64,000 nucleotides of DNA from Bryoerythrophyllum caledonicum. Taxonomy: Eukaryota > Streptophyta > Bryopsida > Pottiales > Pottiaceae. The translations under genes were made by a program, and so were the position numbers. The stretch spans positions 1,586,168-1,650,167 of the forward strand of contig OZ020522.1 in assembly GCA_963971425.1 (NCBI GenBank). The letters run 5' to 3'. Position 1 is the stretch's first letter. The number at the start of each line of letters is the position of its first letter. The notes under the pieces were generated by a model. It worked only from the letters and a program-made list of their open reading frames with translations, searched no databases and was not told the origin of the DNA. Shown here one piece after another: positions 24,501 to 55,470 of this stretch.

Positions 24501-24909
24501 TGTACATGTCTTCTGGAGAATTGTACTAGTCACGTTTAGAAAATACATTTATGCTCATAAATTTGTAGATAGTAAATATTGAAAGTAACTACTGGAAGTT
24601 TTTTCAAACTCAGGGGCTCCTAAGCAAATATGTTTCTTACAACTCAAAGAACTACAAATGAGCTAACTTGGCATGTAAGTAAATGTAGATCAAAAGATTC
24701 CAATATGCTACTAATTACTTGTGAATTTTTTTTTAATTTAATGTGGGAGATTGTAGAACTATAAAGAATACCATTGTGGAAAATAACTAAAGACAAGAGT
24801 GACCTATAATCTCTCTTTTCTCTTTCCATATAAGGTGGTCATACATTTAGCAACTATTTAATGAACTCATACAATTCCAAATTTTGAATAAAAACTTATC
24901 TTGTAAAGA

Positions 24910-25187
24910 AGAAGAACGCTGGTCTCCAAAAGAGGCCAGTGTGAATATAGTGTCTATTCGTACCACTACTAAGACCATGCCGACCGGACAAGGAATTAGT
25001 AAGCTGGAATTACTTCCGCCTCTTGAGGGTATACACTATGTAACAAGTAACCATAGACCACAGAACTAGCCAGTCAAAGGAATAGAAAGGGGAGAGGGGG
25101 GGAGGGGAGAGGGAGGAGGGAAAAATGGGAGAGGAGGGTGTATTTTGCAATGTTCGGGTTTTAAGGGTGAGGTAAAGGGGTAGTTTT
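24910..25187 (-). repeat. 3' UTR of the minus LINE: polypurine tract, conserved tail, hairpin, TTC end
   Basis: After the ORF2 stop come a pyrimidine-rich stretch on the sense strand, ttacttgttacatagtg, the conserved tail, and the hairpin CACTGGCCTC/GAGACCAGCG, closed by TTCTTCTTC. The same unit ends the plus LINE and the dispersed fragments. Confidence 0.8.
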
Positions 25188-25532: not shown

Positions 25533-28500
25533 GTCAATAAGGAGTTGGTATTTTTTTATTTTATTGTCGATTGTTTCTGGGGAGAATCTGTCATTACACT
25601 ATGTAAATTTGACGAATTGAATGGTATAGCCTTGGTTAATGTGATTGGGTGGGAGATCATTGTATGGTAGGCCTCTGAAGCAAAGTATGTCCGGTTTGAG
25701 ACGAGCATTGCAGTGGCATCGTTGAGTTTCACAGGTACATGGGAGTAGCCATGATGGGATTGTATTTTCTTGTGGATTGTTGTTAAAGGTGCCGACATTC
25801 ATGAGGATAAAACATCTTGATTTTGTTATGGGAGGTGATTAATTTGCGGATTTACCGTACAGCTTTGTTATGTCTTTTGACAATTAGGGAGTGTATGTGG
25901 TGGTTATGACATTTAAGTAAAACATGTAACCATGTGTTGGGGTCCGTGGAAGTGCATATGGGGCATATTATAGATGGGAATCTTTCTATTCCAAAGAAGA
26001 GTTGTTTTCCGGCGTTTCCTACATATTGACCAGTACGAAATTTGATGGGGCATGTTATTTGTGAGTCAGTGATGATGGGATTTTTCCAGAAATCGGTAGA
26101 GTGTTCATTGTCTATTTTGTTGTTGTCAGTCCATTTTTCTATATTGGAAAAGTTTTATGCGATTGTGTAAAGGTTGTTATAGAGGTCTTGTTTTTTGAGA
26201 TATTTGTTCAAGAATCTAACCGGGCCATTATTGGGGGTATCTTCTTTAGAAGGCCAATCTACTTTTTGGAAGTAGTATGGGGTAGCATGGGCATGTTCGT
26301 ATGGATCTTTGGCATTTTTATGCGGTTTTTCGCGGCCTTCTTTGGCTAGTTTATCTGCTTGTTCGTTTCCATCGATATTGGCATAGGCTCTAACTTTGTG
26401 GAGGGTTGTTGTTTGTGTTCGATTTTGTAAAATTTGGACCATTGACACTAATATGGTTTGGTCGGGGTGGCTATTGTGGAGGGTAGGATGTGTTATTTGT
26501 GTGTTTAGTAGATAAAGTGCATTGATACAGTCAATGAATATGTGTGCGGGTTCATTGTTGTATTTTGTTGTGATGATTTGTAGTGTTTTGTGTATGGCCA
26601 TGAGTTCTGCTCTAAGGATGTTTTGTAGCCCATGGAGTCTTTTGGCTAATTCAATTTCTTTAATAGGATTGTATATGCCATAACCAACTTTTTCTTTGCG
26701 CCAATTTCCTGGGCTAATTTGTTCAGGCGGTTTGAAGGAGCCATCAGTATACTAGCTATATGTCGGGTCAAATTTTGGTGAGGTTGGGGTCTGATAGTTT
26801 GGGAGGGGTGGAGGTATTGCAAGGTAATCTAATGTACTATTGATGTAGTTTAGTTTTGACCATTTCTTACTCCGGTTTACATGGGTTTGTATACTTGATG
26901 ATGGGGCTATTTTTGTGTATAGACGGTGTATGTTTAGAGAATTTGCTATGGAGGTGAGTTTGGCAAGTTCTTCTGGGGTGCCAAGGGTTTTATTTTGGTG
27001 GTGGACACATTATTTGTAATGTAGACGGTTCAATTTGTGGATTTTTTAGCTCGAGTGGGATAGTGGGTTCTTTGTATGGAATTGAGTCTGCTTCAAATAG
27101 TGCAATGATATGGGAGTTTGGGAATGGGCTTGTCTGTTGGTTAAAGTTTTGGTACCAATTTTTGTCCGGTGTGATAATGAGTGTAGATGTGTGATGTGGG
27201 TCATTTTTAGCAGCAAGGCGGGCTCAATGTAGTGCTTGTTGAGTTTCTTCCTCAATGTGGGGGTGAGCTATACCATTACCGGCCCATTTATAGTCAAAGG
27301 CCTTTCCCAAGGAGCCAAATATTTTATCTCTCTCAAAGGGGGAAAAGATTTTTTAAAAATTTGATGGAACATGTGACGGGGGAGGAGAATTAAGATTGTT
27401 TGATGTTAAAGGATGAGATTAATGAGTCCAGAATAGGTGTGGGTATTGTGTATTGTGCACTTTTGAGGGGATTATTTTTTGGAATGCGATATTTATATCT
27501 TTGATATAACCAAATTAGTTTGGTTTCAAATGGTTGGGTTGTTGGTTCGATGTTTGTAGGAGTTTGTAGTTTTAGGTTATATTGGTTCCATAGCCATTAG
27601 AGTCGAGTAGTGGAAATAGTTAATAAATGTCGGCCATTTTCTTCATATAGATGGGCTTGGTTGTTCTCTATTTTAATTTTGTTCAAGGCTGTGAGAATGT
27701 CGTTTTCGGGGATATATTCTGATGTATAAATGATTAGGAGTGGAATTGTTATGGGTGAAGTTACAGATCTTGAGTCTTGTAATTGTTCTTGGAGGTGGTG
27801 GGCTTGAATGATTTCCAAGTCTAGTTTATTTCTAATTTGTTGATAGTATTGTTTTAATTTTTTGGTGTTGTATGTGGAAGTATTATGGTCATGTCTTGGA
27901 AAGAGGTTTCCTTGAGAAAGCCATTTGTTGAATGTGTTGTTATTGTGTTGCCATTGGCATAAATATCTTGTATAGGTGTTTTTATATTGTTGGTATCTAG
28001 ATGTTGTATATGCTCATGGCTTATGATGTTATTAATAGGATACATATTGGGATTTTTAGGGATGTATGTTGGAGGTCGGGGGTGGTGTGGGTGTAATGGG
28101 TTGGAGGGGTGGATTGGTGGTATGGTATTTCTTGGGAGGGTATTGTTGTCGATGGTGATGAATGGGTCTTGGAGTGTGTAGAAATATGGGTGTATGTTGC
28201 AAGGGGTATCACATGTGGTGGAGCATGTTGGGTGGCAAAAGAGTTTGGCAACATGAAGGGCACTCTTGATTAGTTTGGATGGGGTGAAGTGGGAGGCTTT
28301 GAATTCCTCATTATTCATGATGTGTGTGCCGTTTGGTAAAGTAACTTTGTTTCAATTCAAAAATATTTTTGAGAGGAGTTTTTGTAAAAGTTTTTGGGAG
28401 AGTTGGGCGTTGAGTGTGTTATGGTTTTGTGTTTCTTGGGGCCATACTATTTCTAGTGGTATTCGATCTAGGAAGAAATTTGAAAGTGTACTCATGAGAT

Positions 28501-29244
28501 GAACTTTAGCTACTTTTTTAAATAGGAAAAGTGTACGAGTTATTGGTGATCTTACACAATCCGTTTTTTTAATTCGAGGTATATTTTCGGCACCACCATA
28601 TTGAGCAAGGTTATAGTGAGTTAGTCCATTGTATATTTTTCCGAGCCTTCCTTTGACATTTAGAGCATTTTGTAGTTGTTCCCCTATACACCGGAGATAG
28701 GCATTTTTTAGGGAGAGAGCTTCAAGTCCAAATAGATTATGTGGGAGTTGGGTTATTGCGTTGAACATGCATTTTGGCAGACCGCAAATGGTTTTTTGTA
28801 TAGCAGTGATCTTTTGGTCAAGTTTTTTGATAGCTGGCATAGAGTATGGTACAACATAGAAGCTGTATGCTACGTCTGGGCGTATTAAGGTATCAACCAT
28901 TTTAATTTTTTGTTTCATAGTGGCCGGGCATGTTGTTAATTCTTTGCATTGTTTAATGAATTTTGTGGTTGTAGTGTGAATTTGGATTTTCCATTTTAGA
29001 GAGGGGACAAGGTTTGTGCCTAGGTGTCGTAGTACGTGTTGACAAGTATTCACATCTTAAGACAAAGATACCCTAAGGTAATCGTTTCCACAGAGAATCA
29101 CCGAGAACTACAACAACTAACAGCAAGCCTAGATATATACAATGTTAAACATACCACAATAGATACATCAAAAGAAAGAAAGGAAAGGTTTAGATTACAA
29201 CGCCTGAGCGTTAACTACATCCGCCACCCCGCTCTCCGTTCAAG

Positions 29245-29345
29245 TGCTTTTCCCCGGGTAGGAGCCTACTTCGCTTGGAAGGTAGGGAACTTTGGAAAGG
29301 GACCTACCTCGCTTGGAAGGTAGGGACCTTCGGGTAGGGACCTAC
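29245..29345. repeat. Short direct repeats inside the LTR-like insertion
   Basis: Several copies of a ggtagggacctac / cgcttggaaggtaggga motif occur in tandem. Confidence 0.6.
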
Positions 29346-30934
29346 TCCTACTTAGTCCCGTTTTAGGGGTGGGGTTATCTTTACACCTATGCACACTATA
29401 GACATCCGGAGTACGTGAGTACCCGGAGGAAGATTATATCACCAAGGATGATGGTCCCTGGACTAACAGAGATTTTAGTAGGAACTCAAATAACGACTAT
29501 CCTTCCTCACAGTTTCTCCAATCACTACTACTCACTAACTTGGGATGGTGGTGGTTTCACTGGGTTTCCCTCGTAAGGGAGAATAAGGCTTGGGCCTTAA
29601 GGACTAACACTACTCTTGTGGCAAGCACGTGATTTACCTACCTACCATCCGAGTTGTTAGTCTTTCTTTTACCTCACAATTGGCTAAAGGAGTATTATCT
29701 AGTGGGTTCACATAGCCATCAACTCAAGGGACAACCGACTCTATTCCTTTAGTTCAGGGAACAAAGTCCTCCTCCTATTACTCCAATGGATCACAGCGCA
29801 AAGGGGTTAGTTGGATCTCCTTCATTCTCTCAAGATAATCCGAGCTATTAGAGTAGTTCTTGGTTAACGGCGCATAGCATTGCACATGGGGGTCAAACCA
29901 GGTCCTACTCCGTCCTTAGCACGAATGCTAAAGTAATGTCACCCTCTATAGATCAACCTATCCGACCAAAGGCTGATGCATCCGGGATCTAGAGTACATC
30001 CTCACAATCAGTGACGTCCTGCCGCCGATAGGTCACACAAGATATATCAAGACTCCTTCCTCACCCGTCACTCCTCCCTCGTCCTCCTGTAACCACTTAT
30101 AATCTCATATGTTATTCCCATCTACCCGGACTAACTCTACTTGATGGAACAAGGAAACAATTACAAATGGTAGAGTTAGAGTCACACCCCTACTAACACT
30201 CTCCCCACCTCACCTGTTATTCCCATCCACACGGACTAACTCTATTTGATGGAACAAGAAAACAATGAGTCGATGGTTAGTACGGACTTGAGGACTGGAC
30301 TACTTGAAATGGCACTCACAATCATGTATGGAATCCGAGCTCTCCAACCATCGAAGGTTTTCTGAAAGCGTAGGTTTAGAATTAAACTAAAAGCAAATAC
30401 ACACATCAAGCAGTGAAGAGAGGTGCTATAAGACTCCTCTCTTATACTGCCAAGAACTCACACAAACGCCGAAAGCAAACGATGCCTTCTACTAAACCTG
30501 GCGGCATTAACTACCCTTGACGGCGCAGCCACCGTCCACCAACGCTAAGTACCAAGTCAAAAGGCATCTACACAAATTTCAAGGCAAAACCAAGTCAAAT
30601 CCCAAGTTCAATGCGGGGCCTAGTCCGCGAAAGAACAGTGACCTACCAACTAAGATTTTGACCCTACTTCCGAGTCAACTGATAAAGTCTTCTCTTCTCT
30701 TCCCTCCTTTTCCGCTTCTTTGCGCTCTTGCTTGAAGTCTGGTTCGTTGCAGCCTTCGCGAGCGTCAGAAGTAGTGATAACAGATCTGCAGATGAAGAGG
30801 TGCTGATCCAGCCATGGATGACCGAGGTAAGGTCTCCATTGAAGTCAAAGAGGCATTCGGGCCGCACAGAGTGAGTTGCACGGAAGTCGTGCTCGTGCTC
30901 GTGGTGCCACAACCCTCCCCTCAGCTCTGCGTGC

Positions 30935-31270
30935 TCGGACCTACCTCCCTCAGCTCGCAGCTCGGACCTATTTTCAACTCGCAGCTCGGACCTACTTCCA
31001 ACTTGCAGCTCGGACCTTCCTCCAACTCGCAACTCGGATCTACCTTCAACTGGTTGAAGTGCGGTGCAGTGCGGTGCTCGTGGTGCCACAGCCCCCCCCC
31101 CTCGGCTCGTGCTCTCCTTTCCGGTCCCTGCTTGACCTCTCCTTCGCGGTCCAGGCTCGTCTTCTCCTTCCTGGTCCGCACTTGAACTCTCCTTCGCGGT
31201 TCGAGCTTGTCCTCCCTTCCCGTTCCAACTTGTCCTCTCCTTCCCGGTCCGAGCTCGTCCTCTCCTTTGA
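30935..31270. repeat. ~30-bp CT-rich tandem repeats inside the LTR-like insertion
   Basis: Two adjoining arrays: agctcggacctacttccaac-like units (30935-31050) and cttctccttcccggtccg-like units (31110-31270). They leave frames open on both strands by composition; no gene is inferred. Confidence 0.7.
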
Positions 31271-31330
31271 TTATCCGAGCTTGCCTTGGCGGTGGTGGTC
31301 GTCCTCCTTTGCCTATCCGAGCTCCTTTAC

Positions 31331-31730
31331 GAGCTCACATTCGAGCTGAACCTTCTAGGCAGTATATCTTCCTTAGTATGCATCTGAACAGGACGATTGA
31401 CCACTTGATTGACATGTGCTTGTTGCGTAGATGCCGATAGACTCCTCACTTGTCCCATTTGGACAGTATCAAGGGACTTATGCCTCTCCCAAGGTTCGGG
31501 GCTCCTGGGATAGCTTTCCGGGCTCGGTCCGAGCTCACATCCGAGCTGAACCTTCTAGGCAGCATATCTTCCTTGGTATGCATCCGAACGGGACAATCAA
31601 CCACTTGATTGACATCTTCTCGTTGCGTAGATGCCGATAGACTCCTCACTTATTTCATTTGGACAAGTATCAAGGGAGTTATGCCTCTCCCAAGATTCGG
31701 GACTCTTGGGACAAATTTCCGGGCTAGGTC
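31331..31730. repeat. 200-bp tandem duplication inside the LTR-like insertion
   Basis: Two copies with an exact 200-bp offset, starting gagctcacat at 31331 and 31531, over 85% identical by eye. Confidence 0.85.
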
Positions 31731-32371
31731 CGGGCTCACTTCCGGGCTCTCTTCTTGTTCTTGCTCGTGCCGCGTTTGCTCCTTGCTTTGCTGCTTGCGA
31801 TCCTCTTCCACTACTCGTCCGCCTCCAAGCTCGGTTCACGTTGTGGTGGTCTTGGTCCGAGTCCGTTCCAAGCCCTCTTGGTGATGGTTGCCCTCACGGT
31901 TCCGTCTTTGCCTTCGCCCTCCTATTCTCGTGATGATGGCGATCCTTATGTCCTCTTAGCCTACGTGTGCTCCTTGTTGTGCTGCTTCTAAAGTTAGTGA
32001 TGTTCCTCCCGCCTACTCGCTCATGTTCCTCATCGTCGTCCTAATGGGGTTCTTCCTCGCCTTTGGAGTCTTGTTCCTAGCTTGCTCCATGGTGATCCTC
32101 GCCTACGGGCTGATCTCCTTCGTGTTTATCGCCTGATCGGAACGCTTGTCGTCTTTGGTGCTCGAGTGCTGCCTGCTCGGATCTCCTCGCGCTTTGGTGC
32201 TTGGGCTACTTGATCGGATCTCCTCCTTCCTCGTGCTCCGGTGCTTGGGTTGCCTACTCGGACCTCTTCCTCACGCTCCGCTGCTTGTTCTTATACCGAC
32301 TTCTAGCTTGGGTAGAGCTCGTGAGCAGCTTCCTGCTTGGGCTGCATGCTCGAACCTCCTCCTCGCGCTCC

Positions 32372-32546
32372 GTTGGTGCTCGCCTCCGGGTTCGTGTTGA
32401 TGTCGACCTCCGAGCTTCGTTGGTGCTGGCCTCCGGGCTCTGTTGATGCTGGCCTCCTGGCTCCGCTGATGTTGACCTCCGGGCTCTACTGGTGCTGGCC
32501 TTCGGGCTCGGCTGGTGTTGGCCTCCGGGCTCGGCTGGTGCTGTTC
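32372..32546. repeat. 23-bp tandem repeat inside the LTR-like insertion
   Basis: About seven to eight units of ggctcggctggtgctggcctccg type, imperfect at the left end. Confidence 0.75.
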
Positions 32547-35500
32547 ACTCTTCAGGTTCCAGCTCTATAAGAAGTCCGGGCTTGGGCCGTAGAAGTTTTC
32601 TTCAGGCTTCAATTGTTATCTCCGGGTTCTTTCCCGCCGGGCTCCTCACACTCCGCTTTAGCTGTTAAGCTTCAAGTTGTTTTTCTCCGGGCTCCTTACA
32701 CTCCGCTCCAACTATTGAGCTTCGAGTTTTCTCCTCCCAGGCTCCTTATTCCGCTCCAACTAGGATCGGGTCCTAGACTATTTTATATCCACTCTAAGGT
32801 TTTTGAAATACCTTCTAACTTTCTTAACTCTAATCTACCTTAAAGGTTAATCCTAGTCTAGGACTAACTCCTATATCTATCTAACTAGTCATATTTAAGA
32901 TCCCTAACTAACTAACTAACAAAATTTTAAAATTTGTGGTACGACACTAGGTATACATATGGTTCGTTTTGGTGCAGTATGGGGATTGGTTGGCCACGGT
33001 AGTTGATGTTGGAAGCTTGCATTAGAGCTTTAAGTTTGATTGGATTTATTTTGGATTTATTTGGGCATCCAGTAGCAGCGCACTTTGGGACGCCTACGTC
33101 CATACTTGTCCATTTACAATATCTATCTATTTTTTCGATTTGTGTTTGTAGTTATTTTATTTTATAGTAGCAAGGTCATCGGCGTAGGAGGCGGAGTTTA
33201 TGGTGACTTGAGATGTTCCAAAAGTGTATCCATTATTTCCTCGTTCTAGCCATCTAAGTAGTGGTTCTAAGAATATAATGAAGAGGTATGGGCTAAGGCT
33301 GTCTCCTTGTATAGTTCCTCTATGATTAGGGATAGGTTTAGTTTTACCGAAGTGCTCCCGAGTGTAGTAAGTAGATGATTGGGAGTAGATATTTCCAACT
33401 AGTATAGTTGCGTCTTTTGGGTATCCAATATCCATCATAATTGCTAATATTTGGGCGTGGTCTATAGAGCCAAATGCGGTTTTGAAGTCAACATATAATA
33501 TATACATGTCTTGATTCGTGAATCGTGCGTCTTCTAGTGCTACTATTACGGTTTGAATTTGTCTAGATGTACTTCTCTCTGCTCTAAATCCTTCTTGACT
33601 GTCATAGAGGATTTTAAACTTTTCACCATATGAGGATAGTATTGAAGTAAGCGTACTAGTGTATAGTTTATAAATATTATATTGTATTGGCTAATGCAAT
33701 TGGTCTATGATTTGGAAGTATTGAAGGATCTCATTTTTTTGATAATAAGATAGTTGCAGTTGTTTTCCATGAGGCTGGTATTTGTTTCTGTTTATAGCAA
33801 TGAGAGAAGAATAAAAATAGTAGTTTATGAAATCTTGGTGGCATGTTTTTGAGTATTGAGTTTGGTATACGGTCTGGCCCTTGGGCTTTGTTATTCCCGA
33901 GGTTGCAGAGGCATGTGTCGTATATGGCTCTATTAAAGTATATATATAGTGGTATTTCAGGTTCACCACGTTTGTTTAAGATAAATCCATCAAGATCATG
34001 CCATGGGTATTGGCATACTGCATATGTGCATTCGATTGGGTGTTGCGGTTGGTAGTTACATGTTGATATTGTGGGTCTATTGTTTTTTTATCTGTTGGTT
34101 GAATATTTTGTTTGCAATGTCTTCCGGGCTCGTAAAAATGTTATTATATTAGTCAGTGATGCAATCTAGTGGTGGAGATTCTTGTTTTTTTTTTAAAATT
34201 ATTTATTTCTATAGGGCTAATTTCGTATAATTGTCTACATTTTGAGATGGCTTTTTTAATATTCTCTTTAAAGTATTTTGTAATTACTTGTCGGGCTTGT
34301 ATGTTGGCGTTTTTTGCGACTAGTGCAATGTCTTTTACCTATGTATCGTGGGGTAAGTCCGGAGGGAGTGAAGCAGGGATTTGGGTGTGGTGCAAATATA
34401 GTAATTCATTACATATGGGATGGCTACGCCATTGTGGGTTATTTTTTACGATTCTTATAGTTTTTTGTATTGTATGATATGTAGCTAGATGTTGTTTCCA
34501 TGTTTTAGAAAGTTTACGGGGTAAATACCCGCCTTGTTGTGATGTTCTATTTGTCATTTTTGGTATTGGTTGGGCTTTACAAGTTGGTTCCAATGTATCG
34601 GTGATACTATTAATAAGTGTATCTAGGATGTGGCACGTTTCGTGCCATTGTGTTTGAGAGAGTTGGTTATTATTTTCAAGGATGTTTATGAGGGAGTCAA
34701 TTTGTATGGAGTTTTTTTCAAAGAATTTTGTGTTAAATTTTTCTAAGTTATCTTTTGGGATGGGATTAAGTATGCGTTTGGTGGTGTTATTTATAGTTAT
34801 AGGGGTCCGACATATTAATATGTTATTTGGAATGTCGAGTTGTATAGATGAGAGATCCAAGTTGAGAATATAATTTGTTTTTATTTGTTGTGGAAGTGTA
34901 TTGTGTATTTTTATTTGCGTTTATATAGAAGCCGTCTATTAGGCTCCAATCGCTATAATTATAGCCGCCTTGTCTGGAGTGTTGTATATCAGTATTTATG
35001 TAGGTGAACTTTAGGTTTTCTGTAAAGTAGCGCCATTGGTAATCTATTGTTTGAGGGGGGGAGTTATGATTTCCACTTTGTCGACCAATTAATGCTATAT
35101 CTCTGTTAAAGTTGCCACATAACATGTAAGTGTGATTATGGTTATTATTCATTTGAGATGTAATAGTGTTTTGTATGTCTATAATAAATCTAGTATCTTC
35201 GGGGTGGGATGGCATATACATGTGGAAGATTAGCCATTGTTGTAGTGGCTGATTGGTAATTCTAATTATTTGAAGGTAAGGGGATATGTGCATTGGGGTA
35301 GGGATATTTTTGATGTTGCCCGGAAAGACATATTTTTTGTATATCAGTGTAAGGAGGCCGCCGCGGCCCGGTGTGTACGGTCTTCGTTGTTGAATGCATC
35401 TTGTTAATGCATGTGTGTTATTGAAAATAAGTTTATAGTCTTGAAAAATATTTTGTATGTATTTAATAGATTTTGTGGCGGATAATTTTGTTTCTTGAAT

Positions 35501-36234
35501 GGTTATGAGGGCTGGTGGTGTTTCCGTAGATGTGGTCAAAGCTTGTAATCTGGGTAGAGCAGTGTTTAGAGATGCCGCATTCCATGTAAAGATAATTGTA
35601 TTTTCATTGTTTGTATTAGTGTTTTGGTTTTGTGGTGGAAGGAAAGAGGGGGGGGTGGATGGGTATATTCTGTTATGGGGTCGAAGCATTTTAGTGTCTC
35701 GTAAATAAGATTGTTGGGTAGGTAAGAGAATTTTTGTTTTATTGCGTCACTTGAGGGCGGTATGGTTTGGCTATATAGGAATTTATATAATTCTTTATGT
35801 ATTGAGTTTCCGTGATTTATAATATTCTGATTTTCTTCAATAAATTTTATATATGGGTGTGGGGTATGAATATGTCTTTCTGGTGGATTTTGTAAGTTTG
35901 ATAAAGTTTGTAATATTGTGTCACTCCATCTAATTGTGTTCAAGTTTTGTGGATTTAAAATGTTGTTACACTCATCTATGTTTGGATAGGTGGTAATTAC
36001 TAGGGCATATAAACTATGTGATGATGGGTGTGTAATTTGTTGTTGTATGTATTGGGCAATATTTCGGTGTGTAGTGTTGTGTAGATGACGTAGTGTATGT
36101 GTGATTTTCAGAAGAGGTGCAAATGTTTGAGCGATGTGTGTGTATTCTGGTTGAAGCTTTATGGTGTTTGGTACAAAATATATTTTGGCGTTTCTCTTAT
36201 GTGAGGTGGGATGTCGTTTTAGTATATTGGGCAT

Positions 36235-36279
36235 TGGTCCCGGGTTGGTTTCTATGTCTCCACTGAGAAGAAGTAGGAT
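36235..36279 (-). promoter_or_regulatory. 2A ribosome-skipping motif before ORF2, minus LINE
   Basis: Codons read ILLLLSGDIETNPGP and then Met. D-(V/I)-E-x-N-P-G-P preceded by a Leu-rich stretch is the 2A/2A-like signature, at which ribosomes skip the Gly-Pro bond. A stop codon lies a few codons upstream and no ATG separates it from the motif, so how translation reaches it is unclear in this copy. Confidence 0.85.
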
Positions 36280-36448
36280 TTTAGGTGTTTAGATTTGTTG
36301 TTGTTGTTGTTGTTCTTCTTTTTTGTTTTGTTTCTAATTTGTTTGGTAGTATATAGATATACTATGTTTTTTTTGGGATATATAGTATATATTTTAGTAT
36401 AGATATATACTATAGTATTTTTGTTAATTATAGCGTTGTTTGACGCTA

Positions 36449-38029
36449 TTAGTTTGACGTATCCATCTTGTTTTCAATGGCTCGGTGCTCTCGTTCTGAT
36501 GCTTGTGTTTCCGCCGCCATGATGGTTGCGATGAGTTGAGATCGAAGAGTTGACATTTCCCCTCTAAGGGATTTTACCGTGTTTGTTTGCACCATGTCTA
36601 CATATTGTCTTACTTCCTCAACAATTTCTCCTTTCATGGTTTTCATTTCTCTTCGGAGTTGTTGAAGGGTGATACCATTACCTTTAATTGGGCCGTTCTC
36701 CATGGCTATTACCGAGTTAACTACCGCCAAGATTACATCCATGAATCCAAGCCGTGTTAATTCCTCCACACTGGGTTTGTTGCTGCCATCTAGACTCTTG
36801 GGGTGGGGGGTAAACATTGTATATTTGTCATGAAGTTTTTTACTTTGTTTGGCATATTTTTTGTATACAACCGCATTTAGACATTCGATATTGCAAGTCA
36901 CTACATGTCGGTAATCTTCAAATTTGAAGAATGTGTCCACAACATTCTCCTCCCCAAGTATGGATTTTATTCCTTCCTCTAGTTCTTTTTTGTTTTTTGT
37001 TTTGTTAAGGTTTTTCGCAATTAGAATTAGGCAGTTCTTCTTTGTGATCTCATCCTTATCCATCTTCCGGGTTGCAAAAATGGGTACAAAAATCTCATTG
37101 TAAAATGATATTTTGTAGTCCTTTATTTTGGCTGCTTGTTTCGGGGAGGGAGTTTTGACCCATGCAAACTCAGAAGAACACTTCTTTTCTACTCCTGTGA
37201 CTTTGAAGTCATAACTTCTAGCAAAACTGTCTTTCACAATCTCCTCATGCAAGTTGTATGACTCTATGTTGACAAGGTTAGGACCGGTTATTTTTATTGA
37301 TAGAAAATGCAAGAAAGCCAAGGAATTGTATGACTTGCATACTTTTCCTTGGTGTGGTATTCCTTCATTTAGGGTAAGGATGAAGGGCCTTAGTCCTTGC
37401 AACAACCCTTTGGCATCAATCTTCGGGTTTTTAAGATGCAATTTAGCCACACCAGTCCAAGTATCGGTTTGGTGGTGGCAAAATATGGCAATTGGTTCAC
37501 CAATGCATGTTCCTAAGGCAATTTCCATCTCTTTCAATCTTGCTTTTACCATGTCTAGCACAACATGCTTTGACCATATTTGACTTTCCAATTCAAAATG
37601 GATAGAGACTTGGTAGTCCAAGGCAAAGCCATTTGTATCCACCTCAACTTCACTTGGAAGTTGTGTGAGGTTAAAATAGTTGCCCTCCTTCCCATCAGTC
37701 CGTTAATTGGGCCATTCCTTTTGGGGGATAAACGTGAACGAGGGCATTGCCTCGCAACTTTCAGCTGCCTCGTTTTTGTCGATTCCATACTCCATCATCT
37801 CTTCAATGGTAACACTAGGCACCTTTTGACCTCCATTTTTCTTTGTAATGGTATTCATTGTTTGAAAGCCTAACCAATATTTGGTTGAAGGCAAACTTGT
37901 TGCCTTCACCTTTTTGTGGGTGGTATTTGTGATAATTAAGGACTTTTGGGTTGCATTTATAATACATGGGTTTTCCTCAACCACGTCAACAAAAAGGCGC
38001 TTGGAGGGCATGGCGGTCGTCTGAGACAT
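36449..38029 (-). pseudogene. LINE ORF1, minus copy
   Basis: One frame from ATG at 38029 to the stop at 36449 (526 codons plus stop), broken only by a TAA near 37702. The protein begins MSQTTAMPSKRLF. It has a WLGF motif, a conserved central block (WTGVAKLHLKNPKIDA...LRPFILT...GKVCKSY) and a helical C-terminus likely to be coiled coil. LINE ORF1 proteins usually bind the RNA; no named domain is recognised. It matches plus-copy ORF1 only at about 35-45% by eye. Confidence 0.75.
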
Positions 38030-45629: not shown

Positions 45630-47251
45630 ATGTCCAGCAGTAAAAGGAACCTTTGCTTTGAGGAAATGATGGATATAGATGAAGGAACCTCACACAGAAT
45701 ATTGGCTTCTAAAGGAAAAATTGGTAGAAAAAACATGGAGGAGATTGGCAGCAGCAAGAAGAGCAAAGGCACCGGCGATGAAGAAGGTACGTCCCCTCTT
45801 CTTGACCCCATAACCATGACTTTCAAATTTTGGCTAGGATATGAAGTCATGGAATGCCTTGCAATCGAAGAGGAACTTGAGGAACTCCCACGTGATGAGA
45901 ATATGATGACAAGAGGATTCCAAGAACACGAAGCGAAGGGGTTCAAAACCGCAAGGATGGCATTTCTAGGGATTCCACAACTCTACTACCCACTTTCAAG
46001 ACCGGGGAGTGATGAACAACACTACAATATCACTCAACTTCCCAAAGCACCAAGACCACCGGTGCCACAGGTTTGGCCCTTGACTTCCATGTTGCTATTT
46101 ACTTTGAGCCATCCTCCTCTCTCTTATTGCATGATGATGTTCACAAGATGATAACACAAAGACTAGAGGTCATGGAAATCAAATTAGGATCAAAAGTTAT
46201 GGATCCCATTTACATTCAATGCCATATTGTCAAAAGAGGGGGACAAAAAGGTGTTTGGACCGGCATGTTTAAGCTACACTTACTCAACCCCAAAATGGAT
46301 GCCCTTATGTTGCTAAAAGGAATAAGGCCTTTTATTCTCACCTTTGACAATCAAAATATCATTGGAAAGGTGTGTAAATCCTTTCCCCTAACCGCTAACT
46401 CTTCTAACCTCTCCGTGCAAGTGAGAAGTGACACATTGATAGGTACATCATCCCATCAACTATTCAAGGACGTCCTCTACAATAGCTTCAAGTGCGGCCA
46501 AGATTACAAGATCACGGGAGTGACTAAGGGAGAAGGAGACTCACTAGCCTACATTGCCGCGACCACCCCCCTCCAAGCCTCCAAGATACAACTACAACAC
46601 ATGACCACCCACCATGAGATCATAAAAGCAAGGAAGACCTACATTGGAGGGCGAGTGACACCCAAAATCAAGGCCAAGAAGGATGCCATCTCTCTCACCC
46701 TCTCCCCCTTACCCCTTCTCATGAGTGTGCATGATACTACTAATGCTATTTACATGATTATGGGAGAGAATAACATCAACTCCATTTGGTTCCACAAGGA
46801 AATTGAGGGTAGACACAATGGTAAGGTTAATGTTGAATGCTCTAACCCCATTGTGTATAAGCAATTTGTCAGGAAACAATTTGGCATATGTGACAACTTT
46901 GTGGACTTTGCTCCGCATTGGAAGAGCTTAGAAGGTAAACAACCTCCTACCGAAGAACAAATCAAGGCCTTTGGATTCAACGACATCAATATCGCAATGG
47001 TTAACACCGTTGCAACCTTCAAGATTCAAGACGCCCCCATTAACATCACCAAGAAAGAATTGAAGGAAGCTTTGGAGAAAAACAACAAAAAGATGCTAGA
47101 AAAAAGCAAGAAATACACTGATGCACTACACAGTGAGTTGGTAGATCAAATGGACAAGGTGGAGAATGCCATGAATGCCACATTGCTTGCACTCCAAGCC
47201 ATGAAGGGAAGAATGCCACAAAGACTTGAAGACAAGCTGCCAAACATGTGA
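45630..47251 (+). pseudogene. LINE ORF1, plus copy
   Basis: Starts MSSSKRNLCFEEMMD at 45630, with a FWLGYEV motif as in the minus copy. One frameshift near 46070, after YNITQLPK, leads into the frame LALDFHVAIYFEP...VWTGMFKLHLLNPKMDA...IRPFILTF...GKVCKSF, ending at 47251 (about 540 codons). A Lys/Glu-rich helical C-terminus fits a coiled coil. Role as RNA-binding LINE ORF1 is inferred from position. Confidence 0.75.
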
Positions 47252-48098
47252 AGACCAAGGACCACACGGAAATCCATACTTACCATCTACATAGTTATAC
47301 ACAATACATACGGTACTTTACAATATACATACCCTCTCATTATACTAATACAATACACATCATGGTAGATACATACTTAGATAATACATACAAACATTGT
47401 ACTACCCCCCATTTTTATATCAATACAATTACCATACACATTGCGTATACATACATGACCATCCAATGTACCAACCACCAAATAAAATACCTTGTACACT
47501 ACACAAAATACCCTACCAAATACCACACCAAATACAACTACCAAATACCAAAAAGAAAACATACATACATACACACATACTAGTAAACATATAAAAAACT
47601 CACATAACAATATAATGTGCAATACACATAACAATATAATGTGCAGTACACATAACAATACACCAATAAACACACAAATATACACACACAAACACACCAC
47701 CTTGCACGAATACAAAAAAATACACATACATAAAAATCATACAAAATAACACACAAAGAAACACACAAAAAAAACTCACAAACCATGAAAACAAATTGGT
47801 ACAAAATAGCAGCAAATACCACAAAACCACACATACCATACATACGAAAAAATAGAACTAAAAACATACAAACTAATACACACAAACCCACCCTAAATAC
47901 AAAACAACTAGCAAACATACTCGAAAAAACCACTAGAAGTACAACAAAAGAAAAAACAGTAACACACCAAAAAAAAACTCATACTCACTACAAAACAAGC
48001 ATAACTGCGATAGCACAAAAAACAAAAAAAAACTCCATAAAGTTACACAAAAAACAAAAATTCTAAAACACAACATCAAACCAAAACACATAAAACAC
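47252..48098 (+). repeat. CA-rich low-complexity spacer between ORF1 and ORF2
   Basis: About 850 bp of A and C with many acatac/caca runs and almost no G, including a repeated cacataacaatataatgtgca unit near 47600-47660. The minus LINE has only about 190 bp here, so this spacer has expanded. Confidence 0.75.
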
Positions 48099-48140
48099 CT
48101 ACTATTTTTAGGAAGAGACATTGAAATTAACCCGGGCCCA
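48099..48140 (+). promoter_or_regulatory. 2A ribosome-skipping motif before ORF2, plus LINE
   Basis: Codons read LLFLGRDIEINPGP, then Met at 48141. The frame is open upstream from 47937 (stop at 47934-47936) with no ATG, as in the minus copy. The 2A signature is kept although one variable position differs (Ile here, Thr in the other). Confidence 0.85.
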
Positions 48141-51100
48141 ATGCCCAATATACTAAAAAGACACCCTACATCACATAAGAAAAATGCCAAAATATACTTC
48201 ATACCTAATACCATAAAATTCCAACCGGAATATAGACACATCGCAAAATCCTACACACCTATCTTAAAAAACACACATACATTACAACATACACATATCG
48301 CTACACACCCAAACATTGCCCCATACATACATCAAAACAATACGCATCCACCACTCCACATTCTATATGCCCTAGTAGTCACTATTCACCCACACATAGA
48401 TGAATGTAACCATCTCCTAAATCCACAAAATTTAAACACAATTACATGGACCAATACACTCCTACAAGCTTTACTAAACTTACAAAATCCACCAGAACAA
48501 CACATTCACACTAAGCACCCTTACATAAAGTTTCTTGAAGACAACCATACTATTATAAACCATGAGAACTCAATACATAAGGAATTGTATGACTCGTTAC
48601 CAAACCAAACCATACCTCCCTCAAATGAAACAATAAAACTAAAATTTCCTTACCTCCCTAACAATCTCATTAATGAATCACTAAAATGTTTAGACCCTAT
48701 ACCAGAATACACCCATCGACCTCCACGACTTCCCCACATCCCTCCACAAAATCAAAACATTAGATCAAATCGAGAAATACATGCATAATCACATGGAATG
48801 CTTCCTCTCTAAACACTGCCCTTCCTAGCTTACAAACTTTGGTCATGCACACAGACACACCACCAGCCCTCATAGTTATACAAGAAACAAAATTATCCGC
48901 CACAAAATCTATAAAATATATGCAAAATATATTTCAAGACTATAAACTCATCTTTAACAATACACATGCACTTAAAAAATGCATCCAACAATGGAGACCT
49001 TATACACCGGGTCGCGGGGGCCTCCTTTCACTAATACACAAAAAATACGCCTTCCCGGGCAACATCAACTTACATCCAAATAATCAAAATTACTAATCAC
49101 CCTCTACAACCATGGTTAATCTTTCACATGCATATGCCATCCCATCCCGAAGATACTAGATTTATAATAGACATACAAAAGGCTATTATATCTCAAATTA
49201 ACAATAACCTCAATTACACATACCTATTATGTGGAGACTTCAACAGAGACATAACATTAATCGGTTGCCAAAATAGAAATCATAACACCCCCCCTCAAAC
49301 CATTGATTACCAATGGCGTCGCTTCACATAAAACTTAAACTTTGCCTACATCAATACCGATACACAATTCTCTAGAAAAGGTGGCTATAATTATAGTGAT
49401 TGGAGTCTAATAGATGGATTCTATATAAATACAAACAACAATATACAATACACCTCTACAACAAACAAGGATGTTATTCTCAACTCGGACCACTCACCTA
49501 TACGATTGCACATCCCAAATAACACAATAATAATAGAACTCCCACAATCCTAAACAACGACACTGTACACATACTCAACCCCATTCCAAAAGACAATATA
49601 GAAAAATTCAACACAAAATTCTTTGAAGCAAACTCCACACGAATAGACTCCCTCATAAACACTCTTGAAAATAATAGTCAACTATCACAAATACAATGGC
49701 AAGAAGCATGCCACACCCTAGACAAACTCATCAATAAAATCTCAAACACACTAGAACAAACTTGAAGAGTCCACCCAATACCTCAAACGACAAACATAAC
49801 TTCTCAATAAGGTGGTTATTTACCTCACAAACTTTTAAAAACTTGGAAACAACACCTAACTACATACCATGTTATACGAAAAACCATTAGAATTGTAAAA
49901 AACAGCCCTCAATGACATAACCACCCCATACGCAATAAACTACTAACTCTACAACACACCCAAATCCCTACCCCGCCACCTCCGGATCTACCCCACGATA
50001 CATGGATAAAAGATATCGCACTAATTGCAAAAATTGCCGACATACAAGCCCGAAAAGTAACCTCAAAATATGCCAAAGATAACATAAAGAAAGCCATCTC
50101 AAAATACAGACAATTATACAAAATTAGCACAAAAAAAGAACAACAGAAGAGTCTTTAAAAACCTTAAAACCCCGCCGATGGATTGTATCACAGATGAATA
50201 TAATAATATTCTAACTAGCCCCGAAGACATAGCCAATGAAATATTCAATCAACAAACAAAAAGCAATAGACCAAGAGTACCAACATGTAATTACCAACCA
50301 CAACATCCAATTGAATGTACATGTGCAGTACGCCAATATCCATGGCATGACCTTGATGGATTTACCCTCAACAAACAAGGAGAAATTCCAGAATTTCCAC
50401 TACAACAAACAACCAGAAATTCCACTAACCAGAAACCAGAAATTCCACTATATAAATACTTCAACAAAGCCACATACGACACATGCCTTCGAAATCTTGG
50501 TAACAAAAAAATCCCAGGCCCAGATCGCATACCAAATTCAATACTTAAAAACATGCCTCCAAGATTTCGTAAATTATTATTCCTATTCTTCTCTAACTCC
50601 TACAAACAAAAACAAATACCGACCTCATGGAAATCAAGTGCAACAATTTTACTATGCAAAAAAGGAGACCTGTCTATACTACCCAATCATAGGCCAATTG
50701 CACTAGCTAACACAATATATAAACTCTTCACTAGTACACTCACCTCTATACTATCATTATATGGTGAAAAAATCAAAATCCTATGTTAAAGTGAAGAAGG
50801 ATTTAGAGCAGAGAGAAGTACTGCTCGACAAATACAAACTGTAATAGCTGCACTAGAAGACGCAAGATTCACAAACCAAGATATATACATATTATACGTT
50901 GATTTTAAAAATGCCTTTGGCTCAATAGACCATCCTCAACTACTAGCAATAATGATGGATCTTGGTTACCCAAAAGATGCAACTACACTTGTTGGAAACA
51001 TCTACTCCCAATCATCCACTTACTATATCGGTGAACACTTTGGGAAAACAAAACCTATACCCATCCAAAGAGGAACCATACAAGGGGACACCCTTAGCCC

Positions 51101-54100
51101 ATACCTATTCATTATATTCTTAGAACCACTTCTCATATGGCTTGAACGAGGCAATAATGGATACATTTTTGGCACATTACAAGTCACAATAAACTCTGCC
51201 GCATACGCAGATGACCTTGCCGCCATAACTAACAAAATTAAATCTATCCAAATACAATTCAATAAAATTGATAGATATTGCAAATGGATCGGTATGGACG
51301 TAGGTGTCCAAAAATGTGTCGCTACCGAATGCCCAAACAAATCCAAATTGAATCCTACCACTTTCAAAGCCCTGATGCAAGCTTCTAACATCAATTACCG
51401 CAATCAATCAATCCCTATACTACATCAAAATGAACCATACATATACTTAGGTACAAAATTTCTTGTTCCCTTACTAAAATGGAAAATCCAAATTCACACT
51501 ACAACCACGAAACTCATCAAACAATGCAAAGAACTAACAACATGTCCGGCCACCATGAAACATAAAATATAAATGGTTGACACCGTACTACGCCCAGGTG
51601 TGGCATACAGTTTCTACGGTGTACCATATTCTATGCCAGCTATCAAAAAACTTGATCAAAAAATAATAGCCATACAAAAAACCATATGTGGATTACCAAA
51701 ATGTATGTCAAATGCTATAACCCAGCTCCCACATAACCTATTTGGGCTTGAAGCTTTCTCCCTCAAAAACGCATATCTCCAATGTACATGTGAACAACTA
51801 CAAAATGCTTTAAACGATAAAGGTAGACTTGGAAAAACATATAATGGATTACCTCATTATGTCCTTGCCCAATACGGTGGTGCCGGAAACATACCCAGAA
51901 TTTAAAAAAGTGAGTGCATAAGATCATCAATCACACGAACAGTCTTCTTATTAAAACATGTAGCTAAAGTCTACCTTAAAAGCACGCTTCCAAACCTCCT
52001 CATTAATCCTACATCACTAGAAATACTATGGCGCCAAGAAACACTAAATCACAACACACTCAGTGCCCAACTCTCCCAAAAACTTCTACAAAAACTCCTC
52101 TCAAAAAATATCTTTGAACTAAACCAAATTATTTTACCAAACGGCACACACATCATAAACAATGAGGACTTCAAAGCCTACCACTTCACCCCATCCAAAT
52201 TATTAAAAAGTGCTCTAAATATTGCTAAACAACTATTTTGCCATCCAACATGCCACACCACATGTCATACCCATTGTAACATACACCCATACTCCTATAT
52301 ACTCCAAGATTCATTCATCACCATCAACAATAGCATCACGCCAAGAAATATCCCCCCACCAATCAATCCCCCTAACCCCCCACATCCATACCGCCCTTGT
52401 CCCCCAACATACATCCCCAAAAATCCTACCACGTATTCCATTAATAACATCATACACCATAAACATATCCAACACATAGTCACAAATAATATACAAAATA
52501 CCTATACAAAATATTTATGCCAATGGCAACACAATGATAATACATACAATAAATGGCTTCCCCAAAGAGACCTTTTTCCACGACACAACACCAATACCTC
52601 CATACATAACATTGAAAAATTAAAACAATACTACCCAAAAATTCAAAACATAACTTACTCGGATATCATCCTAGCCCACCACCTCCAAGAATAATTCTTA
52701 GACTCAAGATCCGTAACACCACGGATAATTATCCCTCTCTTAAGCATCTACACAACAGAATGCAACCCCGAAAATGATATCCTTACATCCTCAAACACAA
52801 TTCAAATAGATAACAATCAAGCACATCTTTATGGAAAAAATGGCCAACATTTGCACACTATCCCTGTTACTCCACTCCAATGGCTATGGAATCAATACAA
52901 TACAAAACTACAAACTCCTACGAACATTGAACCAACGACCCAACTCTTTGAAACTGAATTAATTTGGCTATACCAAAGGTATAAATACCGAATACCAATA
53001 AATGACCCCCTCAAAAATGCGCAATACACAATACCCACACTCATTTTAGACTCACTAATCTTATCCTTTAACATCGAACAATCATACTTTTCCTCCCCGG
53101 TCACATGTTCTACCAAACTAAAAAAATTCTACTCACCCTAAGAAAGAGACAAAATATTCAAATCCTTAGGAAAGGCCTTCGACTACAAATGGATCGCTAA
53201 TGGTATAGCTCACCCCCACAATGAGAAGGAAATGGAACCAGCAATACACTGGGCTCGACTTGCAGCCGAGCATGATCCAAACAACACAAATACAATCATT
53301 ATCACACCGAACAACAATTGGTACCAAATCAACAACCAACACTCAAACCCATTTCCAGACTCCTATATTATTGCATTATTTGAGGCAGACTCAATACCAT
53401 ACGAAGAACCTACTATTCCACCCGAGCTAAGAAAACCCCGAGTCGAGCCATCTACACTACAAATACTATGTGCCCATCATAAAAAACAAACCCTTGGCAC
53501 CCTAGAACAACTTACCAAAGTTACCTCCATAACAGACAATTTAAACATACACAGATTATACACAAAACTGGCCCCACCGACACCTATACAAACCCCCGTA
53601 AACCGAAGTAAAAACTGGTCAAAACTAAACTAAGTCAACAATACATTAAACTACTTTATCACACCGCCCCCTCTCCCAAACTATCCAACTCATACCACAC
53701 CAAAATTTAACCCCGCACATAGTTATTACACCGATGGCTCTTTTAAACCACCATAACAAATTAGCCCAGGAACTTGGCGCAGAGAAAAAGCTGGCTATGG
53801 CATCTACAATTTTACCAAGGAAATTAAGCTAGCCAAATGACTCCATGGACTACAAAATATACTTAGAGCAAAACTCGTGACCATTCACAAAACACTACAA
53901 ATCATCACAACAAAATACAATAATGAACCCGCACATATATTCACCGATTGTATAAATGCACTTTACCTACTAAACACTCAAATAACACATCCTATTATTC
54001 ACAATAGCCACCCAACCAAACCATATTAATATCAATGGTCCAAATGTTACAAGATCGAACACAAATCACAACCCTCCACAAAGTGAGAGCCCATGCCAAT

Positions 54101-55134
54101 ATTGATGGCAACGAACAAGCAGATAAACTAGCAAAAGAAGGCCGAGAAAAAACACACAAAAAAGCCAAAGACCCACACGAACATGCCCATGCTACCCCAT
54201 ACTACTTTCAAAAAGAAGACTGGCCTTTCAAAGAAGATACCCCCGTCAAAGGCCCGATTAGATTTTTGGGCAATTATCTCAAAAAACAAGACGTCTACAA
54301 CAACCTTGACACAATATCAGAAAATATTCCTAGCACAGAAAAATGGACTAACAATAATGACATAGACAATGAACTCTCTACAAATTTTTGGAAAACCCCA
54401 TCATTTCATACTCACAAATAACATGCCCCATCAAATTCCGTACTAGTCAATACATGGGAAACGCTCGCAAACAACTCTTCTTTGGAATAGAAAGATTCCC
54501 ATCTATAACATGCCCCATATGCCCTTCAACGGACCCCAACACATGGCTTCATGTTCTACTCAAATGCCAAAACCACCACATACACTCCCTAATTGTTAAA
54601 AGACATAATAAAGCGGTATAAAAAGTTCAAAAACTAATCACCTCCTACAACAAATCAAGATGTTTTATATCAATGAACGATGGCACCTTTAATAACAATC
54701 CATAAGAAAATACGGTCCCTCCTTGGCTACTCCCATGCTCATGTGAGACTCAAAGATGTCACTGCAATGCTAGGCTCAAACCGGACATACTTTGTGTTAG
54801 AGGTTTACCATATAATGACCCACTACCCAATCACATTAACCAAGACTACACCATTCAATTCATTGAATTCACATATTGCAACGATAGATTTTCCACGGAA
54901 ACAATTCAAAACAAAATAGGTAAATACCAACCCCTCATTGACGACATCATTGCCCTTGGATGGAATGTGGACCTCCTTATTGTTATCACATCTGGTGCTC
55001 GTGCCACCACCTTTATCCCATCTATAAAAACTCTAGAAGATACCTTCAAAATACCCATTGAAACAATTAAAACCACCTTTAAAAACATTAGCACTGTCGT
55101 TATTCAATATGCCATGTCCATTTTTACTACATAA
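48141..55134 (+). pseudogene. LINE ORF2, plus copy: APE endonuclease, RT, RNase H, CCHC, RLE-like
   Basis: Domains: N-terminal region 48141-48770 (MPNILKRHPTSHK as in the minus copy); APE endonuclease about 48790-49520 (IQETKLS, LCGDFNRD, and SDHSPI all readable); RT about 50500-51900 (AYADDL); RNase H about 53724-54160 (YTDGS, RAKL with the catalytic Glu now Lys, DGNEQADKLA); C-x2-C-x9-H-x4-C at 54511-54567 followed by KRHN; RLE-like domain 54700-55070 with KPD at 54778-54786, Glu at 54865-54867, then K..KYQPL and GW...GARA. Numerous frameshifts and stops. Inactive, but it retains more catalytic residues than the minus copy. Confidence 0.85.
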
Positions 55135-55460
55135 ATGCAAAATTGAAAACAACCAAGCCCTCCTCAATACACAAGACCCCCCTTTAATGCTTCCCCCGCC
55201 CTGATTTATCATGATTGGTTGGTTTCTTGGTTTTTTGGCTACTTGCTTAGTTAGTTGGTTGATTCGTTGGTTGGTTGATTCGTTGGTTGGTTGTTTGTTT
55301 GGTTGGTTTCTGGCTACCCGTTACGTAGTGTCTACCCTTGAAAGGGGAAGTAGTTCCAGCTTACTAATTCCCTATCTGGTGGGCATGGTCTTAGTAGTGG
55401 AACAAACAAACACTTTATTCACGCTGGTCCCCTTCGGATACCGGCGTTCTTCTTCTTCTT
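55135..55460 (+). repeat. 3' UTR of the plus LINE: GGTT-rich array, conserved tail, hairpin, TTC end
   Basis: A ttggttgg-type simple repeat (about 55215-55315) sits where the fragment at 10.6 kb has its heptamer array. Then come cgtagtgtctaccctt, gggcatggtcttagtagtgg, cactttattcacgctgg, the hairpin and TTCTTCTTCTTC. Confidence 0.8.
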
Positions 55461-55470
55461 CAATTGGATC

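What the first reader, a model, noticed from the sequence alone, without database searches (positions are those of the whole stretch)
36235..36279. 2A ribosome-skipping motif at the head of a plant LINE ORF2 (minus copy)
The minus-strand codons give LLLLSGDIETNPGP immediately before the first Met of ORF2. This is the full 2A consensus (DxExNPG/P) with the usual Leu-rich upstream part. 2A-like motifs are known at ORF2 N-termini of some animal and trypanosome non-LTR elements. Here it sits in an element that also appears to carry two nucleases.
Basis: partly seen in the sequence, partly recalled or inferred. Interest (0 to 1): 0.92.

Follow-up and report, generated by a model that had tools for sequence, protein, structure and literature searches.

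The report
Ribosome-skipping peptide inside plant retrotransposon frame
A jumping gene repeated many times in a plant genome carries a 2A ribosome-skipping signal, kept by selection, at the joint between a long, fast-changing leader and its replication enzyme, so the enzyme is probably released clean from whatever is fused in front of it.

Summary
The 2A motif is real, at the stated place, and not chance. A second, inverted copy of the same LINE in the window (48117-48140, +) carries it too. Of 89 database relatives that show the site, 73 keep NPGP and 87 the Met after it. In 100 copies from the plant's own genome, silent sites of the PGP codons vary about 14 times more than replacement sites. 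So the 2A is under purifying selection.

One correction: in five long-frame copies read, the 2A is not at the start of an ORF. It joins an in-frame leader of 844-1,338 codons to ORF2 (2,340-2,342 codons in the two followed to the stop). The leaders have no stop in that frame and 44-136 in each other frame. Both window copies are decayed, with short, interrupted leaders. ORF1 is a separate frame, and ORF1 types have been exchanged between ORF2 lineages. Decayed 2A heads lie inside the leaders.

Best reading: the 2A frees ORF2 from a variable translated leader. Skipping is not shown. Domains point to the Dualen/RandI group. 2A in non-LTR elements is known; a plant or Dualen case was not among the papers listed by my searches.

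The parts
36235..36279 (-). 2A motif of copy A: I LLLLSG DIETNPGP; core octapeptide 36235-36258; skip expected between Gly and the last Pro
36232..36234 (-). ATG directly after the 2A; Met in 87 of 89 relatives that show the site
48099..48140 (+). 2A motif of copy B: LLFLGR DIEINPGP; core 48117-48140; ATG at 48141-48143
36259..36448 (-). stretch between ORF1 stop and 2A core in copy A (190 nt; 475 nt in sister copy L022), with in-frame stops: short remnant of the leader
47937..48116 (+). last 60 codons of the leader of copy B, open in the 2A frame, no in-frame ATG; stop just upstream
35566..36231 (-). copy A, N-terminal domain of ORF2 after the 2A (all-helical model, mean pLDDT 68, no known fold); frame broken near its end
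34823..35746 (-). copy A, APE-type endonuclease region, assigned by likeness to relatives with PF03372/PF14529; no Pfam match of its own
33157..33690 (-). copy A, reverse transcriptase (PF00078)
29012..32946 (.). about 3.9 kb insertion in copy A that copy B lacks
26155..26751 (-). copy A, RNase H (PF00075 E 7.9e-10)
25602..26154 (-). copy A, CPxC..HxxxxC, RHN and KPD motifs resembling a restriction-like endonuclease (by motif only; frame broken)
36449..37702 (-). copy A, ORF1 (type A), separate frame, own stop
24908..25060 (-). copy A, 3' end: hairpin and (TTC)n tail
46016..47251 (+). copy B, ORF1 (type B), 33% identical to that of copy A
48141..48788 (+). copy B, N-terminal domain of ORF2
50088..51572 (+). 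copy B, reverse transcriptase region (PF00078 E 8.7e-21 in 50790-51572)
54008..54421 (+). copy B, end of RNase H (E 2.4e-05, just under the curated cut-off)
54406..55134 (+). copy B, CCHC, RHN, KPD..E motifs of a restriction-like endonuclease (by motif only)
55320..55461 (+). copy B, 3' end: hairpin and (TTC)n tail

Best explanation
The motif is a 2A (StopGo) signal of a two-ORF plant non-LTR retrotransposon. In long-frame copies one frame holds a low-complexity, fast-changing leader, then the 2A, then ORF2 (helical N-terminal domain, APE, RT, PCIF1-like region, RNase H, RLE-like end). At NPG|P the peptide bond is skipped, so ORF2 protein starts at Pro-Met whatever lies in front. This would make ORF2 indifferent to the length, sequence and start codon of the leader, and may be why ORF1 types and leader pieces can be exchanged or added. 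Shown here: the motif, its purifying selection, the open leader frame, ORF1 exchange, decayed older 2A heads in leaders. Inferred: that skipping happens, where translation starts, that the ATG after the 2A is a second entry point, and that tolerance of leader change is what selection keeps.
For: Conservation: of 125 database relatives, 89 show the site; NPGP in 73 of 89, the strict consensus in 63 (69 with H allowed at p14), Met after it in 87. On a tree of 90 rows both main sides keep the 2A, and changed rows are mostly single tips. Own genome: 1,865 matches to DIExN..MPN with the PGP codons left free, 0 in the reversed control. Of the 100 listed, 81 read PGP in 21 codings; non-majority bases 140 of 300 at third positions, 20 of 600 at first and second. 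GDIExNPGP itself: 1,599 matches, control 0. ORF2 dN/dS of copy A against B is 0.07-0.26 in nine blocks. In-frame leader: five long-frame copies with 1,338, 1,153, 844, 1,058 and 1,044 leader codons; stops 0 in frame, 44-136 in each other frame. In 49 non-redundant copies, 1.86 stops per 100 codons in frame against 5.92 and 4.20. 18 of 19 pairwise leader indels (five copies, not independent) are multiples of 3. ORF1 exchange: L062/L061 ORF2 head 96%, ORF1 69%; L062/L011 ORF1 89%, head 75%. Literature passages seen: LLLLSG-like is one of the upstream classes, p14=H above 95% active (PMC12846837).
Against: No translation assay. No conserved start codon: the first in-frame ATG lies at a different leader position in each of the five copies, and 20 of 28 copies with the exact 21-mer show no in-frame ATG between the last stop and the core. 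Leader constraint is weak (dN/dS about 0.63-0.68 over alignable parts, 0.32-0.67 in the last 240 codons, against 0.14-0.20 in ORF2; three copies). The five copies were picked by open-frame length and form one clade; one of them, L063, has an ORF2 about 230 codons short by its total frame (3,162). Both window copies are dead. NPGP is lost in 16 of 89 relatives and PGP in 19 of 100 genome rows. One search demanded intact D, I, E, N, M, P and N around the counted codons.
Confidence: 0.72

Rival explanations
1. N-terminal 2A as a switchable signal sequence: translation starts shortly before the 2A, and unskipped chains go to the secretory route while skipped ORF2 stays in the cytosol, as in sea urchin NLR proteins.
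For: Leucine-rich stretch before the core; 6 of 28 copies with the exact 21-mer have an ATG eight or nine codons before the core (KHMK), others a Leu, Ile or other codon there; some relatives show an in-frame Met about 30 residues upstream. The precedent was read in passages of PMC4981915.
Against: The short-start ATG is not conserved; the five long-frame copies have 844-1,338 open leader codons instead. Secretion of a nuclear reverse transcriptase has no obvious use.
Confidence: 0.1
2. ORF2 starts at the ATG after the 2A by reinitiation after ORF1; the 2A stretch is conserved as part of a start-site context or as a relic.
For: Met after the 2A in 87 of 89 relatives; in copy A no ATG lies between ORF1 stop and that ATG.
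Against: Amino acids, not bases, are kept: third codon positions are free. Leaders are open in the 2A frame far more than in the others. The ATG has C at -3 and C at +4 in both window copies, a poor context by general knowledge (recalled).
Confidence: 0.1
3. The peptide is kept as a protease site or a structural piece of ORF2 protein; no skipping.
For: Conserved in place next to a conserved domain.
Against: The conserved residues are those required for StopGo, the free residue is the free one (p15), and the upstream residues match a class described with activity tests. Some database relatives carry several 2A motifs with unrelated text between (P0112 three, P0095 two).
Confidence: 0.07
4. Chance match in low-complexity DNA.
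Against: 0 in 40 shuffles; 1,599 genome matches, 0 in control; conserved in relatives.
Confidence: 0.01

Closest known systems
2A in APE-type non-LTR retrotransposons: L1Tc and Ingi of trypanosomes; Rex1, Crack, L2, CR1 of animals (Heras 2006; Odon 2013; clade list recalled; papers not read, titles seen in reference lists)
   Same: 2A in frame at the N-terminal side of the enzyme ORF of a LINE
   Different: Here a plant; probably the Dualen/RandI group; a separate ORF1 is present (recalled: 2A went with one-ORF elements); a leader of up to 1,338 codons precedes the 2A; decayed 2A heads in the leader
Dualen/RandI non-LTR group (Chlamydomonas) (passages of PMC4640811, and tables of PMC3747384)
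   Same: APE, RT, RNase H in one ORF; RLE-like end by motif; short-repeat 3' tail; short elements with the same tail
N-terminal 2A signal sequences of sea urchin NLR proteins (passages of PMC4981915)
   Same: 2A at or near the N-terminal side of a protein that works inside the cell
   Different: There about 26 aa at the very N terminus; here a long leader in the long-frame copies
Picornaviruses with several 2A sequences in a row (abstract start and passages of PMC11512398)
   Same: More than one 2A in one frame (P0112, P0095)
   Different: A retrotransposon; in the plant the extra motifs seen are decayed (NPRP, IPGP)

Membership tests
2A / StopGo peptide | core octapeptide (D/G/C/N)(V/I)ExNPGP | tested here: met
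   both window copies; 63 of 89 relatives strictly, 69 with p14=H
2A / StopGo peptide | suitable upstream residues (Leu-rich LLLLSG-like class) | tested here: met
   LLLLSG in copy A, LLFLGR in copy B; Leu at -13 in 75 of 84 and at -12 in 71 of 86 relatives; class named in PMC12846837
2A / StopGo peptide | open frame running through the motif from upstream | tested here: met
   open leader in the five long-frame copies, chosen for open frames, and fewer stops in frame in 49 copies; not so in the two window copies
2A / StopGo peptide | translation through the motif and ribosome skipping | not testable with these tools
   needs cell-free translation or footprints
Dualen/RandI non-LTR group | APE endonuclease N-terminal to RT | tested here: met
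   PF03372 E 1.3e-05 and PF00078 E 9.3e-27 in one frame of L059
Dualen/RandI non-LTR group | restriction-like endonuclease C-terminal | tested here: inconclusive
   CPxC..HxxxxC, RHN, KPD..E motifs in frame; no PDB match; model unusable, pLDDT 37
Dualen/RandI non-LTR group | RNase H | tested here: met
   PF00075 E 1e-13 in L064
Dualen/RandI non-LTR group | RT phylogeny between RLE and APE groups | tested here: inconclusive
   RT of copy B scores better against R2 (2.1e-18) than L1 chains (5.9e-08) in the PDB; copy A matched R2 and other RLE-type chains but no L1 chain at E 0.001; no tree with named clades
plant L1 | poly(A) 3' tail (224 of 233 L1 families of flowering plants, table in PMC3747384) | tested here: not met
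   (TTC)n tail after a hairpin in both window copies
one-ORF 2A-bearing APE LINEs | no ORF1 (recalled) | tested here: not met
   ORF1 match upstream in both window copies and in 25 of 28 copies L001-L028 (not in L004, L019, L028), and in 2 of the 5 long-frame copies (L061, L062; none in the stretch held for L059, L060, L063)

The most novel reading that the evidence does not exclude
The 2A is an insulator that lets a retrotransposon change its front end freely. Any in-frame start and any leader, of any length, gives the same ORF2 protein. The element therefore exchanges ORF1 types and adds leader pieces, leaving a fossil record of older, decayed 2A heads inside the translated leader. The nearly invariant ATG after NPGP gives scanning ribosomes a second way to almost the same protein.
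Probability: 0.4. Interest if true: 0.9.

Novelty: new variant of a known kind. Interest (0 to 1): 0.78.

Why it matters
How LINE ORF2 is translated behind ORF1 is an old question. Here more than a thousand places in one plant genome keep a StopGo octapeptide, and in long-frame copies it lies at the joint of a long open leader and ORF2, so the question can be tested with one short reporter. A 2026 survey found no natural use of StopGo by plant viruses (abstract and passages of PMC12846837), so a native plant example would show that plants do meet this recoding, and would offer natural sequences for gene stacking. The leaders may also record past exchanges of element front ends.

Tried and rejected
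Chance was rejected. ORF1 fused in frame to the 2A was considered: none of 9 ORF1 relatives holds NPG, and ORF1 ends on its own stop in the copies read. Searches of viral contigs and genome contigs found no relative. The model of the domain after the 2A (mean pLDDT 68) has no PDB match at E 0.001. The model of the C-terminal region is unusable (pLDDT 37), and sequence search gave no R2 endonuclease. No convincing target-site repeat was found for the window copies. A first count of the Met after the 2A used an anchor that favoured Met; it was replaced by a profile-based count. A control for the indel count yielded no usable indel. A PADLOC scan gave only a weak SIR2 hit, not used. Papers that I could not read: Odon 2013 and Rao 2025, a survey of eukaryotic and viral 2A sequences; either may already list plant elements.

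Full report
What is there. The minus strand at 36235-36279 reads I LLLLSG DIETNPGP followed by ATG. A second copy of the same element lies inverted on the plus strand, with DIEINPGP at 48117-48140. These are the only two D[VI]ExNPGP matches in six frames of the window; 40 dinucleotide shuffles gave none. The copies share blocks of 77-86% DNA identity, from 36326 / 48047 on. Copy A carries a 3.9 kb insert that B lacks (29012-32946). Over nine ORF2 blocks dN/dS of A against B is 0.07-0.26 in the coding frame, codons with stops left out, so both lineages evolved as coding sequence for long. In the 2A core the two copies differ by two silent changes (Ile, Gly) and by one residue at the free position.

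Host. The genome that holds the window is 437 Mb in 894 contigs. It encodes LEAFY-type SAM domains (7 matches, best E 1.3e-27, 0 of 14 controls) and 58 chlorophyll a/b-binding matches (1 of 14 controls, Synechococcus). It is a plant of the streptophyte line (the restriction of LEAFY to that line is recalled).

Is the 2A under selection? A search with the head of ORF2 gave 36 relatives; a profile search found 182 and listed 120; 125 proteins were held. 121 could be placed by a profile of the region downstream; 89 of them show at least 8 residues upstream of the Met; 31 begin at the Met, one lies within 8 residues, and 4 start too late, so these say nothing about the 2A. Of the 89, NPGP is intact in 73, the strict consensus in 63, in 69 if His is allowed at p14; Met follows in 87. 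Of the 16 without NPGP, 11 have Pro to Leu or Gly to Arg; one is a frame-shifted row. On a tree of 90 rows (88 relatives and the two window copies) the labels need 17 changes; changed rows are mostly single tips, and the six His rows form one clade (support 99). In the plant's own genome, DIExN - PGP free - MPN matches 1,865 times, control 0; GDIExNPGP matches 1,599 times, control 0. The first 100 of the 1,865, all on contig C1, were counted: 81 read PGP, in 21 codings; bases off the majority are 140 of 300 at third positions and 20 of 600 at first and second. These rows were selected for intact neighbours, and many are copies of few lineages. Among loci of the best protein matches in the genome, 26 of 29 rows have NPGP; the 29 include copy A itself (L029) and L035, the same place as L017; L049 was not placed.

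What lies upstream. Copy A has an in-frame stop 33 nt before the core and no ATG between ORF1 stop and the ATG after the 2A; ORF1 stop and core are 190 nt apart, against 475 nt in sister copy L022, which shares both ends of that stretch. Copy B has 60 open codons without ATG. A genome search with the head scored 150 of 4,322 candidates; by my count of its table 26 of 150, without stops inside the match, have open frames of 2,350 codons or more, up to 3,686. Five of these were read. In all five the frame runs through the 2A: leader 1,338, 1,153, 844, 1,058 and 1,044 codons, with 0 stops in frame and 44-136 in each other frame (for three of them base composition predicts 64-102), then ORF2 open to the edge of the stretch held (1,813-1,824 codons). 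In the two whose 3' part was fetched, ORF2 from the Met to TAG is 2,340 and 2,342 codons. The totals agree with about 2,340 for L061 and L062; for L063 (3,162) they leave about 2,110, so that copy ends early. The five were chosen for open frames, but a chance run of this kind is not credible, and the bias is seen in a wider set: 60 of 63 loci read, 49 after removal of near-identical leaders, with 1.86, 5.92 and 4.20 stops per 100 codons in frames 0, 1, 2, and 20, 0 and 0 of 49 free of stops (one of the 60 rows, L005, was misplaced). Among 19 pairwise leader indels with clean flanks 18 are multiples of three; pairs share copies, and the intended control had no usable indel. Leader dN/dS in three copies is 0.63-0.68 where alignable (0.32-0.67 in the last 240 codons, few changes), ORF2 0.14-0.20.

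Starts. The first in-frame ATG of the leader is at codon 151, 145, 159, 12 and 511 of the five. In L062 ORF1 stops at 1338-1340 and that ATG is at 1361; in four other copies with the same ORF1 type (L002, L005, L011, L020) the place reads ATA. Of 28 copies with the exact 21-mer (28 fetched of 30 matches, one of the other two being copy A), 8 show an in-frame ATG between the last in-frame stop and the core and 20 none; 6 of the 8 have it eight or nine codons before the core. So the start is not fixed; this is the weakest link of the account.

Front-end exchange. ORF1 of A and B are 33% identical over 403 columns, far less than ORF2. L062 and L061 share 96% of the ORF2 head but 69% of ORF1; L062 and L011 share 89% of ORF1 but 75% of the head; L011 and L017 share 88% of the head and no ORF1 match. 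On a tree of 35 heads the five ORF1 types, set by identity thresholds of mine, need 7 changes where 4 is the least; for type B1 starred branches force 3, but one B1 row (L005) is a long branch of uncertain place. Inside the leaders of all five long-frame copies lies an older head, DMETNPRP plus about 24 codons of the following domain; L059 has a further one, DIEQIPGP. Outside this plant, P0112 has three 2A motifs in one frame, P0095 two, P0093 a second decayed one; P0037 and P0046 hold a second, decayed head.

Domains. ORF2 of a long-frame copy has PF03372 (1.3e-05), PF00078 (9.3e-27), PF12237 PCIF1_WW (1.3e-10) and, in the 3' part, PF00075 (1e-13). The C-terminal end has CPxC..HxxxxC, RHN and KPD..E, like the restriction-like endonucleases of R2-type elements by recalled motif; PDB searches and the fold did not confirm it. 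By domain content it fits Dualen/RandI (passages of PMC4640811). Both window copies end in a hairpin and (TTC)n tail; three more short stretches with the same tail stand elsewhere in the window. Green-algal RandI elements also have short-repeat tails and SINE partners (tables of PMC3747384).

Mechanism. The most likely account is skipping at NPG|P that frees ORF2 from a translated leader. Shown: motif, selection, open leader, ORF1 exchange, decayed older heads. Inferred: translation through the leader, skipping, start, role of the Met, and the insulator idea.

Comparison and novelty. 2A in non-LTR elements is known from trypanosomes and animals (titles; clades recalled). PMC12846837 (abstract and passages) names an LLLLSG-like class, finds p14=H active above 95%, cites 26-56% for E14Q, and finds no StopGo use by plant viruses. 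My literature searches listed no paper on a 2A in a plant or Dualen element; they cover open-licence papers only and show the top of longer lists, and Odon 2013 and Rao 2025 could not be read. I therefore call it a new variant of a known kind.

Noticed in passing
L059:4512-9989 and L064:3-2246 (+); ORF2 between RT and RNase H: PCIF1_WW match (PF12237, E 1e-09 to 1e-10), the family of the cap adenosine methyltransferase; PCIF1 itself appears weakly in the PDB search (E 0.42). Not detected in the piece of window copy B that was scanned (53142-53633). A possible RNA-modifying domain in a LINE.
   Followed up: partly
window 10779-10870, 19978-20105, 25405-25535 (+): Short stretches with the same hairpin and (TTC)n end as the LINE; the one at 25.4 kb sits inside copy A between short repeats of flank. 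Possible SINE partner or 5'-truncated copies.
   Followed up: partly
window 29012-32946: 3.9 kb insert in copy A with several tandem arrays (periods 23-69); not identified.
   Followed up: no
L061 about 1127, L062 about 1338 and other type-B ORF1 copies: A stretch just after the ORF1 stop is kept (around CAAGGTAA), resembling a splice donor.
   Followed up: no
P0014, P0016, P0025, P0115 and P0017, P0032, P0072, P0087: Recurrent motifs in leaders of relatives (RPTGLA; A[YS]RPR), in some more than once.
   Followed up: no
window 10731-11264 (-); 12436-15690 (+); 1939-4839 (+): Tc1/mariner-type transposase piece (PF01498 E 1.7e-12), Ty1/copia-like remnants by eye, and a TTC7-like TPR gene in exons (PDB TTC7B E 3.8e-07).
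   Followed up: partly
window 57331-57862 (+): Tandem array of a 38-base unit, ten copies, open as a charged repeat.
   Followed up: no
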